Positions 14,814-34,256 of a stretch of 64,000 bases of DNA are shown here, piece by piece. The position numbers were made by a program, and so were the translations under genes. Location: positions 15,355,001 through 15,419,000 of the forward strand of contig NC_092566.1 in assembly GCF_037975245.1 (NCBI RefSeq), in the 5' to 3' direction. The notes under the pieces are model-generated. The model ran no database searches. It was given only the letters and a program-made list of their open reading frames with translations, and was not told the origin of the DNA. Positions within the stretch are counted from its first letter, which is position 1; each line of letters starts with the position of its first letter. The stretch is from Apostichopus japonicus (taxonomy: Eukaryota; Echinodermata; Holothuroidea; Aspidochirotida; Stichopodidae).

Positions 14814-15100
14814 TTATTTACCAAGGGCGTGTATGGCGTTGTTTGCATGGTGCACCAGTGAGTGCCACAAGCTTTTCTCTTCTGGGGTTAGTTCGTCAAA
14901 TCCCTCTGGATTCAACGCAGCCATTTTCTCCTCTAAGTCATCAAGCAAAGCATCTTTGTCCTCCCCATCGTCTCCAGCGAAGTCCCTCTTTCCTGGCTCA
15001 TTTGCTGCTGGCTTACCATGCCGGAAACGATGAAACAGATGCTTCAAAAATCCTCGGCGAACGAGAGCATCGTCGAAAGTTTCGTCCTCCATCGGGGCAG
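14814..15100 (-). CDS. Gene B, exon 2: mature part of a secreted His-containing cationic peptide precursor
   Basis: This exon gives residues 20-114 of a 114-residue precursor; splicing to 16842-16899 is in phase 1 at a TATTACAG acceptor. After the signal peptide comes an acidic stretch (MEDETFDDAL, residues 23-32) ending in Arg-Arg (34-35), a likely convertase site. Next is a basic aromatic/His segment GFLKHLFHRFRHG (36-48), a Gly-Lys-Arg at 56-58 that could act as a cleavage plus amidation signal, an acidic spacer (59-95), and a C-terminal amphipathic segment SLWHSLVHHANNAIHALGK (96-114) ending Gly-Lys-stop, which predicts C-terminal amidation. There are no cysteines after the signal peptide. 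The spacer motif PEGFDELTPEE is shared with gene A (PEGYDELTPEE), so the two are paralogs. The design matches linear antimicrobial peptide precursors; I recognise no named family, and activity is inference. Confidence 0.85.
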
Positions 15101-16841
15101 CTGTAATAATAAATATTGTATAATGTGTGGTTAGGTCGAATTATTTTTAATTCAGCGCGCCAATGAGAAAATAGTTTGCTGGAAAATGTAAAGCACAGAT
15201 ATGTTTATGTCGGTATCTGGAGTATTAATGTGGCGGCTTGTAAATAACCCCCCCCCCCCCCCAAAAAAAAATAGTACAAGGCTCAATAACGTCATGTGTG
15301 GGTTGTGCAAGTTTGTGTGGTGTGAAGGGGAAGGAGAGTGGGAGGGGAGGGGGTTGGTGTAATCGACGGGGATCCAGGAGACTTGGTGATGATGAGGGAT
15401 AAAAGGGGACAGCAAGGCTAGGTGGAATAGGGTGGGGACAATGGAAGATCGAGAGAAACAGTGAAGGCAAACGGGCGAGGTTGGATGAAAGTGGGAGGGG
15501 TGGGACATCGACAAAGAGGGGAGAAGCAAAGGAAAGAGAGACGAGAGGTGAAAAGAGGGAGAGGTGAAGAGGGAGTACACTTGAGCGTTTAATAAAAACC
15601 ATTATCAGGGATGTGCCCAGGACTTCCTGAGTGCCGGGTATACTGATCGCCGTCCTGGGGGAGGGTCTAAGTGGGAGGGTGTGTCCCCCTCCCCTTTGTG
15701 AAATTTTTCGATTTTTGAAGGTGCTCAGATGCCAAATGCTGGCACTTGTGTAGCTTGTGAAGCACATACACAAGTACTATAGTTTTGCTAACAATTTACA
15801 TTTTTTATTTTTTTTTAGTGAAATATATTACGTACCTGGTAAAGTTATGGTACAGTTTGTTTCAAAGAGATTTTACAAGGGACCGATTGAGATCCGTAAG
15901 TAATGTTTCTCGCATGGGTAACTGATGCATTATAGTCTGTATGACTTTGGCATATAGGCTAGGCCCAAATTATGTTAAATATATTGTTAGGAATGTCGGT
16001 ATTTTAGATGAAAATAGTGCTGGGCGGGATCAACGATTTTTTTAAGACAGTGCTGGGCGGTAATTTTAGTGCTGGGCGAGGCTGCCCAGTGCCGCCCAGC
16101 GTATAGGCACATCCCTTCATTTATGTTTGATAGTTGGCTATGCACTATACTAGGAGTGTTCTCTTCCTCTAGAAAGGAGAAACTAGCACAATCAAGGATG
16201 CCCATTCCAACTAACATTCATATACATACGTCCACACACACACACGCACTAACATATATGGTAATACTTGCTAAGGAGAAACAGTTTATAACATGAATCC
16301 ACATACACGGAAATGTGCCAAAACCGTATTTTCCTATACCACAATACCAAAATATTGCGATAAATGATAATTACGAGTTTACGGATACTCGATCACCAGT
16401 TAGTTAAGCAATGGTTGGGTCAATGTAAACCTCATTTCGAAGTGGGTGAAGTTGTAGGGGAAATATCAAACGGTTATACCAGGTAGTATACAGGCATAGT
16501 GGAAACTTGTTAAAACAGTTATCTTCTTTACTGACTTTAATACATTTTTCGATATTTTCCAATACTGAAATCAATAAGAATGCAGTTCATTATCTTGAGA
16601 AAGGGACGTTTCAAGTCATGCAGTATTATTTAAGAGGATATTTATCTTTAGAATTTTTCCCAATGTTCAAAACCACTTAACCTAACGTTAATACCCTTAA
16701 CAATAGAGTTCTTCGGGGAACGTGGTGATTCTTTCTCAAATGATGTATGAGGACTTGGTATTCCTTTGTTAAAGTCTTCAATCGGAATATAAAACAGGTG
16801 CTTGGACACACACAGAGCCCAACACACATATAAAGACTTAC
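15101..16841 (-). other. Intron of gene B (1.74 kb, phase 1)
   Basis: GT-AG intron (donor GTAAGTC, acceptor TATTACAG on the minus strand). It contains a MITE at 15606-16117, a C run at 15248-15262 and a G/A-rich (polypurine) stretch at about 15320-15575. The sequence at 16648-16690 is shared with 12195-12230. Confidence 0.8.
15606..16117. mobile_element. hAT-like MITE, CAGGGATGTGCCCA family, 512 bp
   Basis: Begins CAGGGATGTGCCCAGGACTT and ends with the inverted complement GGCACATCCCTT. The related copy at 48440-48775 begins CAGGGATGTGCCCA and ends CCACATCCCTG, in inverted order relative to this one (the CCGGGTATACTGATCGCCGTC segment lies at the opposite end). Flanks ACCATTAT and CATTTATG resemble each other but are not an exact 8-bp duplication. 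It is inserted in the intron of gene B. Confidence 0.65.
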
Positions 16842-16899
16842 CAACGATTGCTACAGTGCAAAAGACGAGCGCCAAGATCACACACCGGAGAACTGCCAT
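16842..16899 (-). CDS. Gene B, exon 1: signal peptide
   Basis: Encodes MAVLRCVILALVFCTVAIV and the first base of codon 20. A short basic N-terminus (R5), a hydrophobic core (residues 6-19) and small residues at the predicted cleavage (A20-A21) make a standard secretory signal. The exon ends G|GTAAGTC, giving a phase-1 intron at the signal-peptide end, exactly as in genes A and C. The N-terminus aligns with gene A (MALIRCLAFAF...). The ATG chosen is the first one after the TATA-like box about 100 bp upstream. Confidence 0.85.
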
Positions 16900-16994
16900 G
16901 TTTAGTTTGTCTTGATGATAGTAACTTCGAAATCTCGAAAATGTTTGAAACAGTCTTCAAAGAGCAAATGGTGAAGAAGAGAACATCCAATGAC

Positions 16995-17003
16995 CTTTTT
17001 ATG
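16995..17003 (-). promoter_or_regulatory. TATA-like box of gene B
   Basis: The minus strand reads CCATAAAAAGG about 100 bp before the ATG of gene B. Gene A has CCTATAAAAAG at almost the same distance (about 102 bp), and the leader between box and ATG shares short motifs such as the TTTCAAACATTTTC / TTTTCAACATTCC pair. Conserved spacing supports a real core promoter. Confidence 0.55.
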
Positions 17004-17246
17004 GAAAAGGGGCTAGACTTTGAAAGCCATTGAATTGGGAAATGTCGGTCAAAGGAGCAGGTACGATAAATCAGAACCAAATCTAGTCGCTAGCTTGAAG
17101 GATAAAAAGAAATTTGAAACAATCTAATGGGGCAAAACTTTGAATGTTATCTACTTGGAAATGTCTGTCAAAGGAGCGGGTACGATAAATCAGAACATTA
17201 GTTGGTATTAACTTGAAGGATGGAAATAAATTTGAAAGAATCTAGG
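16997..17246. repeat. Two tandem ~125-bp units directly upstream of gene B
   Basis: Both units hold, in order, AACTTTGAA/GACTTTGAAAGCC-type sequence, GGAAATGTCNGTCAAAGGAGC, GGGTACGATAAATCAGAAC (or CAGGTACG...), CTTGAAGGAT and AAATTTGAAA-AATCTA. They span about 17005-17120 and 17133-17246. They begin at the TATA-like box and run upstream, so they may be duplicated promoter-proximal sequence. Confidence 0.65.
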
Positions 17247-18120
17247 GGAGTACATAAATATTGGTGAAAGGAGGCTTGTACGACATGCCAAGTTCATGAC
17301 CGTACCAGTCTGTGATATTCTTCAGCGTAGTAACAGGGGAGCAGAGGGGCAGCCGCCCCCACCCCCACATGTTGTAAAATGGCTGAGGGGGTTGGCCACT
17401 GTCACTATATCATATTAACAAAGGAAGTGGCAGGCAATTAATTTATTATTTTTTGGAAATGTTGATGAAATATTGGAATTCATATAGTTTTGAAAAAAAA
17501 TCATTCCAAACTTTTCAATTTCCCCTCTGGGCCACCCGCTAGGATCTACAAAACTAAATTTAATTCACTAAAGCAGTAAAAAATATATGAGAAAGGTAGC
17601 CTGGTGAAAACCCAGACCCAACACGTGTTGTGCCAAGTGACTTTGATACTTTCCTTCTCTACTGACGATATCTTAGTGGTAGTACACGACGACGTTCGAC
17701 AATGTTTATCTATACATTGCAGTGGTGTAGGGAGCTTTAACACCAAAAGTGAGGGCAGCAAAATGGTGGTGTTTGGAGATATCTCCCAGGAGAATTTTCG
17801 TTTTCACGATCTCCACGAAATTTCGACTTGTCACCTTCAAAGTCTGACTGCTATCTCGATATTACAACTTTATACCGAAATTTCCAGTATTTTGTCTCAA
17901 CATTCAAATTTGATTTCTTTATAATCGGAAAGAAAGTTTCGAGGAATTGCGCTTTGTCTATAACCTAGATTTTTGACCAGTACTATCCACTTGTATCCGT
18001 TTCGTAAAAGCAAAGTCTAATGTGCAATGTTTATCAACGTCATTCACAATGACTATACTTAAACCAAGGAGAAATTGGTAATTCTCTAGATTTTGCATCA
18101 CATGTACTTCGATTTGTGAT
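17247..18120. other. Non-coding stretch, nothing recognised
   Basis: No supported gene. There is a CCGCCCCCACCCCCAC run at about 17354-17369. Confidence 0.35.
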
Positions 18121-18123
18121 CTT

Positions 18124-33785: not shown

Positions 33786-33820
33786 ATATATATATAACTA
33801 TATATATAACTATATATATA

Positions 33821-33911
<91 letters not shown>

Positions 33912-33918
33912 CGATTTC

Positions 33919-34009
<91 letters not shown>
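33786..34009. repeat. Long (TA)n tract
   Basis: About 220 bp of nearly pure TA dinucleotide with a short non-TA interruption near 33908-33920, just upstream of the splice acceptor of gene C. Confidence 0.95.
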
Positions 34010-34011
<2 letters not shown>

Positions 34012-34044
34012 TATTTAAATATATTGTTTTCCTTTGTATTCCAG

Positions 34045-34256
34045 TTACTTCTTTAGAAGACGAATCTCCAGCTAATTCCTTGCGTCAGCGATTTCTCTGG
34101 TGGGGTAAGCATCCCAAACCTCAACATGGTCATCATGAGCATCATGGCCATCATGGCCATCAGAGCCATCATGGCAATCAACACGGTGGTAAGCAGGAAG
34201 CCAATCACGAAACGAGAGAGTTGGAGGAAGGACCAGAAGTCGTTGCAAATTACTAG
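34045..34256 (+). CDS. Gene C, exon 2: His/Gly-rich secreted peptide, C-terminally shortened
   Basis: Residues 21-90 of a 90-residue cysteine-free precursor. The pro-segment [13 protein letters not shown] (21-33) aligns with SSIEDEVLDADAL of gene A and ends in RQR (34-36), a basic cleavage site. Then come [11 protein letters not shown] (37-47) and repeated [17 protein letters not shown] sequence (48-70), then an acidic tail ending NY-stop. Unlike A and B there is no Gly-Lys amidated C-terminus. Downstream (34258-34353), in the +1 frame relative to this one, the DNA still encodes a segment with LPEERW followed by a basic/hydrophobic stretch that resembles the LSPEER helix of gene A. The short product is thus best explained by a frameshift in an originally longer paralog. 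It may still make a functional His-rich peptide, or be a decaying gene. Confidence 0.75.

What the first reader, a model, noticed from the sequence alone, without database searches (positions are those of the whole stretch)
14814..34256. Cluster of three paralogous secreted, cysteine-free, histidine-rich peptide precursor genes
Genes B (minus), A and C (plus) share exon 1 = signal peptide, a phase-1 intron at its end, an acidic pro-segment with E-D-E and a final Leu before a basic cleavage site (VRR, SRRR, RQR), then a cationic aromatic/His peptide. B and A also share PEG(F/Y)DELTPEE and a C-terminal amphipathic segment ending Gly-Lys-stop. Each gene has a TATA-like box 100-120 bp before its ATG. 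The architecture is that of linear antimicrobial (or metal-binding) peptide precursors. I recognise no described family; echinoderm holothuroidin-type peptides are also short and His-rich, but I cannot claim homology.
Basis: partly seen in the sequence, partly recalled or inferred. Interest (0 to 1): 0.85.

Follow-up and report, generated by a model that had tools for sequence, protein, structure and literature searches.

The report
Expanded sea-cucumber SWYG peptide precursor array
The three genes belong to a larger cluster of sea-cucumber genes for small secreted peptides; one very probably makes a published muscle-active peptide, and the way the peptides evolve suggests that they may really be defence peptides.

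Summary
The genes are real, but the cluster is larger than reported and gene A belongs to a published family. The genome fits the A. japonicus (sea cucumber) assembly in size, and carries five clustered NGIWYamide units. Gene A encodes SWYGTLG after a PEER site, i.e. the published peptide SWYG-2 (precursor AjSWYGP-2, in print as a neuropeptide precursor). B is a paralog; C is a probable divergent one. The window is the edge of a ~180 kb array: 18 exon-2 loci on contig C6 (6 A-type, 11 B-type, C) plus one on C8 (D). The array also encodes SWYG-1 and SWYG-3; the published amidated SWYG-3 mass matches.

New here: precursors with up to three cysteine-free peptides (P1-P3) between acidic spacers; 15 of 15 unbroken A/B/D exons end Gly-Lys/Arg. 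Between A and B types the spacers are conserved while the peptides diverge, as described for sea-urchin centrocins and opposite to what I expect of a neuropeptide. At least 6 of the 10 other B copies lack a complete leader exon. Best reading: a fast-evolving host-defence family. Activity is untested; signalling remains a live rival.

The parts
14814..15100 (-). Gene B exon 2: acidic pro-segment, LVRR, P1 GFLKHLFHRFRHGKPAANEP-GKR, acidic linker, PEGFDELTPEEK, P3 SLWHSLVHHANNAIHAL-GK, stop
   Evidence: best match is itself, next copy 97% identical
15101..16841 (-). Gene B phase-1 intron (GTAAGT...ACAG)
16842..16899 (-). Gene B exon 1 (coding part), leader MAVLRCVILALVFCTVAIV; the only B-type copy seen with a complete leader exon
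22197..22254 (+). Gene A exon 1 (coding part), leader MALIRCLAFAFIVCSVKTF; TATAAA at -103
22255..23752 (+). Gene A phase-1 intron
23753..24246 (+). Gene A exon 2 = SWYG-2 precursor: pro-segment, LSRRR, His-rich P1, linker, P2 YGLHALLHNVGKHVAEHIGRNLKAR, PEGYDELTPEER, P3 SWYGTLGKAALGALSLF-GK, stop
   Evidence: SWYGTLG = published SWYG-2
23895..23912 (+). Telomere-like CCCTAA repeat inside the coding exon, part of a 23-residue block that the other five A copies lack
32318..32378 (+). Gene C exon 1 (coding part), leader MLSVHRGLVLLLVFGSVVSF
32379..34044 (+). Gene C phase-1 intron, with a long (TA)n tract
34045..34256 (+). Gene C exon 2: pro-segment with [13 protein letters not shown] and a His-rich tail; no P2, no P3, no Gly-Lys end
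   Evidence: no second copy

Best explanation
A, B and D (and probably C) are members of the sea-cucumber SWYG precursor family: exon 1 encodes the leader, exon 2 an acidic precursor carrying up to three cysteine-free peptides. P1 follows a basic site (RR or RQR). P2 and P3 each follow a duplicated EL(S/T)PEE(R/K)-type unit and start near Trp or Tyr. P3 ends in a Gly-Lys/Arg amidation signal. Shown here: gene anatomy, the array, the identity of gene A's product with SWYG-2. Shown in print: transcripts for two A-type precursors and an amidated P3. Inferred: release of P1 and P2, and function. Most likely these are host-defence peptides: small cationic or His-rich membrane-active peptides held inactive by acidic spacers and diversified by tandem duplication and loss; the seven-residue 'myoactive' SWYG peptides would be N-terminal fragments of the longer amidated P3.
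For: Exact SWYG-1, -2 and -3 sequences open P3 in A_15209, window A and A_15257/A_15278. Published SWYGSLASALL-amide 1165.61316 Da, computed 1165.6131. Gly-Lys/Arg end in 15 of 15 unbroken A/B/D exons although P3 runs from 11 to 19 residues. Internal duplication of the P2 and P3 units in 4 of 4 precursors tested, p 0.0002-0.003. A_win versus B_win: spacers dN/dS 0.21, 0.23, 0.05, but P1 0.58, P3 1.26; A_win versus BL_15223: spacers 0.21, 0.23, 0.13, P1 0.54, P2 0.75, P3 2.10. Non-synonymous change per site is higher in released segments in 3 of 4 comparisons, p 0.0002-0.0045. The same contrast is described for centrocins. Contrast in the same genome: all five NGIWYGK units agree in protein while differing in DNA, although the pattern allowed other residues at three positions. 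Charge alternates: 6 spacers -5 to -10, 18 released segments -1 to +3 not counting His. Lone PDB matches of B-long P2 and P3 are pleurocidins.
Against: No activity, localisation or challenge data. The precursors came from a nerve-ring transcriptome and the SWYG peptides act on muscle. PDB matches are not significant (E 0.45-0.87), and 2 of 4 family peptides searched gave none. Helical moment beats shuffles in 4 of 18 released segments only, in none of the five P2. A-type P3 has no His and charge 0 or +1. The contrast fails in BL/D (p=0.40), the N:S ratio test fails for A_win/A_15209 (p=1.0), and synonymous change also differs between segments in A_win/BL (p=0.045), a sign of recombination. Within A types and against D some spacers reach dN/dS about 1, and P1 falls to 0.26-0.35 within A types. 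Comparisons share branches; dS is near saturation for A versus B.
Confidence: 0.5

Rival explanations
1. SWYG-type peptides are genuine neuropeptides or hormones, as published; P3 acts through a receptor on muscle or nerve, and P1/P2 are spacer or secondary products. The array reflects neutral duplication.
For: Isolated by effect on muscle contraction and tabulated as bioactive peptides; precursor transcripts and the amidated peptide come from the circumoral nerve ring. Amidation and monobasic cleavage are typical of neuropeptides (general knowledge).
Against: P3 diverges faster than the spacers in A versus B; about 18 tandem copies, many broken, is unusual for a neuropeptide (general knowledge); nerve-ring tissue also holds other cells, so origin in neurons is not shown in what I read.
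Confidence: 0.3
2. The precursor works whole as a His-rich metal-binding or opsonin-like secreted protein, like the sea-urchin Transformer family; cleavage products are incidental.
For: Transformer genes also have a leader exon plus one coding exon, mosaics of blocks, and a His-rich region (passages). Here P1, P2 and a His block come and go in frame, and C is mostly a His-rich stretch.
Against: No RGD in any of 16 exon-2 products and 5-11% Gly, so no sign of the Gly-rich/RGD layout; conserved amidation end, and published amidated P3.
Confidence: 0.1

Closest known systems
Apostichopus japonicus SWYG precursors AjSWYGP-2 and AjSWYGP-3 (PMC6586643, PMC3432112)
   Same: Same P3 peptides, leader length, lengths (array A copies of 152 and 159 aa versus 152-153 and 158-159 published), few exons; gene A encodes SWYG-2.
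   Different: Window A is 183 aa because of a 23-residue repeat block. B, C, D, the array, and P1/P2 as products are not in the text I read; figures and supplements were not seen, and the GenBank records were not compared.
Centrocins of sea urchins (PMC4805251, PMC3561256)
   Same: Acidic precursor of similar length, 20-residue leader, cationic peptide opening G-W-F, acidic interchain, second peptide with C-terminal Gly-Arg/Lys; spacers conserved, peptides variable.
   Different: Centrocins have cysteines and form heterodimers; here exon 2 has none. Best similarity P1 of A_15310 to centrocin 1 heavy chain, p 0.0001-0.0011, best of 50 tests: likeness, not homology.
Holothuroidins (Holothuria tubulosa coelomocytes, PMC3702452)
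   Same: Holothuroidin 2 matches P2 of B-long at 7 of 12 residues without gaps; sea cucumber, His-rich, no precursor given in the passages read.
   Different: p 0.0002-0.0004 for that pair but 0.023 against whole precursors; 4 other peptides of the fraction tested do not match. Reported activity is very weak (12.5 mg/ml).
SpTransformer (Sp185/333) proteins
   Same: Leader exon plus one coding exon, block mosaics, His-rich region, gene family.
   Different: No RGD, not Gly-rich; small multi-peptide precursors; the paper states no homology outside euechinoids.
Pleurocidins (fish) and clavanins (tunicate)
   Same: HVGKHV-type His/Lys segment; pleurocidins were the only PDB matches for two of our peptides.
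   Different: E 0.45-0.87; at most convergence. For clavanins only a listing and the start of an abstract were seen; the likeness is recalled.

Membership tests
SWYG precursor family | Encodes SWYGSLG, SWYGTLG or SWYGSLA after a basic residue | tested here: met
   A_15209, window A, A_15257, A_15278: 4 of 6 A-type. A_15310 and A_15330 have SWYSSLA; B and D have SWWxS, GWWHS or SLWHS at the same place; C lacks it.
SWYG precursor family | Amidated P3 is made | tested here: met
   Published mass equals the computed one; not from window genes directly, and SWYSSLAGALL-amide has the same mass. Fragment spectra not seen.
SWYG precursor family | Sequence identity to GenBank MF422086/MF422087 | not testable with these tools
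   Records not held; lengths only compared.
Centrocin | Cysteine-linked heavy and light chains | tested here: not met
   0 cysteines in exon 2 of 16 of 16 aligned copies.
Centrocin | Conserved pro/interchain, variable chains, Gly-Arg/Lys end | tested here: met
   the contrast fails in BL/D.
Holothuroidins | Holothuroidin 1/2 sequence inside the precursor | tested here: inconclusive
   7 of 12 identical to P2 of B-long; p 0.0002-0.023 depending on the null.
SpTransformer | Gly-rich region with RGD | tested here: not met
   No RGD in 16; Gly 5.3-11.4%.
Antimicrobial peptides (functional class) | Kills or permeabilises microbes | not testable with these tools
   No assay; sequence proxies mixed.
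Neuropeptides (functional class) | Neuronal release and receptor | not testable with these tools
   Nerve-ring transcripts in print, no receptor in what I read.

The most novel reading that the evidence does not exclude
The 'SWYG neuropeptides' are products and fragments of a sea-cucumber defence system: a birth-and-death array of multi-peptide precursors, each releasing two or three different cysteine-free peptides (His-rich P1, pleurocidin/holothuroidin-like P2, amidated Trp-starting P3), and the missing gene source of holothuroidin-type coelomocyte peptides. B exons that lost their own leader exon could still be read by splicing from an upstream A leader, since the leader exons end in the same phase (not tested).
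Probability: 0.3. Interest if true: 0.75.

Novelty: new variant of a known kind. Interest (0 to 1): 0.5.

Why it matters
If right, it re-labels a published neuropeptide family as host-defence peptides and gives sea cucumbers a clustered, fast-evolving, gene-encoded linear peptide family comparable to sea-urchin centrocins. It points to a gene for SWYG-1, for which the two precursor papers read here (in part) report no precursor. It yields exact peptides and masses that can be looked for in existing A. japonicus peptidomes and synthesised.

Tried and rejected
Profile libraries: Pfam best 12.8 bits against a cut-off of 25; NCBIfam best 11.7 bits against 195, both for A, B and C. PDB with whole B: a designed protein (E 0.015) and a ribosomal protein (E 0.39), taken as chance. 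PDB with window-B P3, window-A P2 and a control peptide: no hits. Motif text search (DELTPEE, PEGFDEL, PEGYDEL, FHRFRHG): no paper; the 6 papers found hold centrocin or holothuroidin strings. Listings on echinoderm and sea-cucumber antimicrobial peptides (20 titles shown of each) showed no such gene family. H. glaberrima genome preprint: 'antimicrobial' and 'histidine' not in it; LPS-gene paper: none of five terms. SALMFamide patterns: no match, uninformative. AATAAA is found after the A and C stops but not within 400 bases after the B stop. Structure prediction was never run (7 busy answers). Genome-wide search with A or D exon 2 did not complete, so distant copies may be missed; one search scored 20 candidates only. 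Dropped rows: 3 of 11 B-type exon-2 loci (15243182, 15292100, 15304359) were left out of alignment and dN/dS because of stops or a frameshift; dN/dS was computed for 17 chosen pairs, not all. Rejected: Transformer membership; bacterial origin once suggested for the SWYG-3 transcript and withdrawn in print.
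Full report
WHAT IS THERE. The three gene models check out: a leader exon ending in a phase-1 GT donor, one intron, one coding exon. The window is G000 contig C6:15355001-15419000 of a genome of 671,581,487 bases in 35 contigs. The A. japonicus chromosome-level paper gives 671.60 Mb (671,643,915 in its scaffold table), 34 scaffolds, 23 chromosomes of 18.21-46.02 Mb and 38.56% GC (passages): close, not identical. 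C6 (18.96 Mb) and C8 (43.0 Mb) fit that range; window GC is 38.7%. A degenerate pattern built from recalled NG-peptide motifs found five matches, all clustered on C5, all reading NGIWYGK; the reversed control pattern had one match. The published A. japonicus NGIWYamide precursor has five copies. With the SWYG matches below, the species is very probably A. japonicus; the tool does not name it.

THE ARRAY. A search with B exon 2, tblastn over 264 kb of C6 and a look at the C8 locus give 19 exon-2 loci. A-type: 15209185, 15257157, 15278424, 15310286, 15330081 and window A. B-type: 15217756, 15223466, 15228845, 15243182, 15251596, 15273452, 15292100, 15304359, 15322272, 15349400 and window B. C is in the window. 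D is at C8:10380969-10380700, with leader MSVIRCSALVLIFCTVAILG at C8:10382259-10382200. The copies outside the window and window B are on minus; window A and C are on plus. C has no second copy in its genome search. All 6 A copies have an intact leader exon. Of the 10 other B copies, 5 have half of the leader exon deleted (5' half only: 15217756, 15292100; 3' half only: 15223466, 15251596, 15273452, the last with a changed donor), one (15322272) has no leader match at the expected place, and four cannot be judged because withheld N blocks cover or cut the place. Two B copies contain stops and one a frameshift. Window B is the only B copy seen with a complete gene. This looks like birth and death.

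WHAT THE PRECURSORS ENCODE. Alignment of 16 of the 19 copies (3 broken B dropped): acidic pro-segment; basic site; P1 (GFLKHLFHRF..., GGWFHRLFHHHHH...; absent in D, nearly deleted in A_15257/A_15278); acidic linker; PEER; P2 (FDWKGFASHVGKHVAQHLTSHLKER and relatives; absent in short B copies); acidic spacer; PEG(F/Y)DELTPEE(K/R); P3; Gly-Lys/Arg-stop. C has only the first part and a His-rich tail. The P2 and P3 units are an internal duplication (4 of 4 members tested, p 0.0002-0.003). The Gly-Lys/Arg end is in 15 of 15 A/B/D copies aligned; C lacks it. None of the 16 has a cysteine in exon 2.

LINK TO PUBLISHED PEPTIDES. Elphick 2012 (PMC3432112; [quoted passage not shown] They are the first seven residues of P3 in A_15209, window A and A_15257/A_15278. 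The 2019 paper (PMC6586643; section 43 and passages) reports AjSWYGP-2 (158-159 aa, SWYGTLG) and AjSWYGP-3 (152-153 aa), 2-3 exons, both on LG12, and mass-spectrometric detection of SWYGSLASALL-amide; my computed mass agrees. A_15310/A_15330 (152 aa) encode SWYSSLAGALL, of equal mass; the paper's fragment spectra were not seen. Window A is 183 aa, 160 without a 23-residue block of HHHGE and telomere-like repeats that the other five A copies lack: probably a length variant of AjSWYGP-2 (inference). A 2022 study found SWYGP2 absent from embryos and larvae (passages). SWYG with sea cucumber and Apostichopus is in three papers of the library; in the parts I read, the B, C and D genes and P1/P2 are not described. 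I saw no figures or supplements.

EVOLUTION. Nei-Gojobori counts by segment for 17 chosen pairs, segments set from the alignment and cleavage sites before counting. A_win versus B_win: spacers dN/dS 0.21, 0.23, 0.05; P1 0.58, P3 1.26. A_win versus BL_15223: spacers 0.21, 0.23, 0.13; P1 0.54, P2 0.75, P3 2.10. Against this clean picture: within A types counts are small (A_win/A_15209: linker 0.93, P1 0.26, P2 3.79), and against D the short linker (9 codons) is 0.77-1.05. Non-synonymous change per site is higher in released segments in 3 of 4 comparisons (p=0.0002, 0.0007, 0.0045; BL/D p=0.40). The N:S ratio differs in 3 of 4 (p=0.005, 0.020, 0.035; A_win/A_15209 p=1.0). Synonymous change also differs between segments in A_win/BL (p=0.045; A_win/B_win p=0.27), which suggests recombination. 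Comparisons share branches and are not independent. In 9 of 10 B copies exon 2 (first 198 bases) is closer to window B than the adjoining intron, a hint of constraint that shared ancestry may inflate.

CHEMISTRY. Charge alternates: 6 spacers -5 to -10, 18 released segments -1 to +3 without His, with 0 to 8 His. Helical hydrophobic moment beats shuffles in 4 of 18 released segments, none of the five P2; centrocin 1 (1-20) and holothuroidin 2 as yardsticks do pass. PDB: B-long P2 matches two pleurocidins (E 0.79, 0.87) and B-long P3 one pleurocidin-like peptide (E 0.45), and nothing else; two other family peptides and one control gave none. Of 50 family-versus-known comparisons the best two are centrocin 1 heavy chain with P1 of A_15310 and holothuroidin 2 with P2 of B-long (p 0.0001-0.0011 and 0.0002-0.0004 with more shuffles). 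Against whole precursors holothuroidin 2 keeps p=0.023, and four other peptides of that fraction do not match.

HOW IT PROBABLY WORKS. Shown in print: transcription of two A-type precursors and amidation of one P3. Inferred: P1 freed at the basic site and, in B, amidated at GKR; P2 freed at single Arg; acidic spacers neutralising the basic/His-rich peptides before release; the array supplying changing variants. The simplest function that predicts conserved spacers, changing products, tandem copies and loss is defence against microbes. The published myoactivity may be a side effect of fragments, or the true function. I put defence at 0.5, signalling at 0.3 and whole-protein metal binding or opsonin-like action at 0.1.

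KNOWN OR NEW. Gene A: known family, very probably a known gene. B, C, D, the array, a gene for SWYG-1, the multi-peptide layout and the divergence pattern were not found in what I searched and read. Centrocin membership fails on cysteine; likeness in working remains. The clean comparison still missing is sequence against MF422086/MF422087 and other sea-cucumber genomes.

Noticed in passing
C6:15343752-15343519 (L027): Orphan 5' half of a B leader exon with no B exon 2 after it in the visible sequence: another dead copy.
   Followed up: partly
window 23895-23912: Telomere-like CCCTAA repeats inside the coding exon of gene A, read as Asn-Pro repeats.
   Followed up: partly
window 19280-19525: Long GATCAT/GTC simple repeat between genes B and A, open in several frames.
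   Followed up: no
window 49136-49516: Exon matching isovaleryl-CoA dehydrogenase (best PDB match E 5e-24).
   Followed up: partly
window 40669-41970: Minus-strand 433-aa open frame that looks like a LINE reverse transcriptase by eye (no search made).
   Followed up: no
window 25575-26327: Minus-strand 250-aa open frame with a GIY-YIG-like stretch by eye (no search made).
   Followed up: no
window 29751-29825: tRNA-Cys-like sequence beside a (TA)n tract; a similar stretch near 33680-33740 by eye: probably a tRNA-derived repeat.
   Followed up: no
C8:10382259-10380700 (L029): Gene D, family member without P1 on another contig; its P2-spacer2 part is closer to B-long in synonymous sites than its pro-segment, which suggests gene conversion.
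   Followed up: partly
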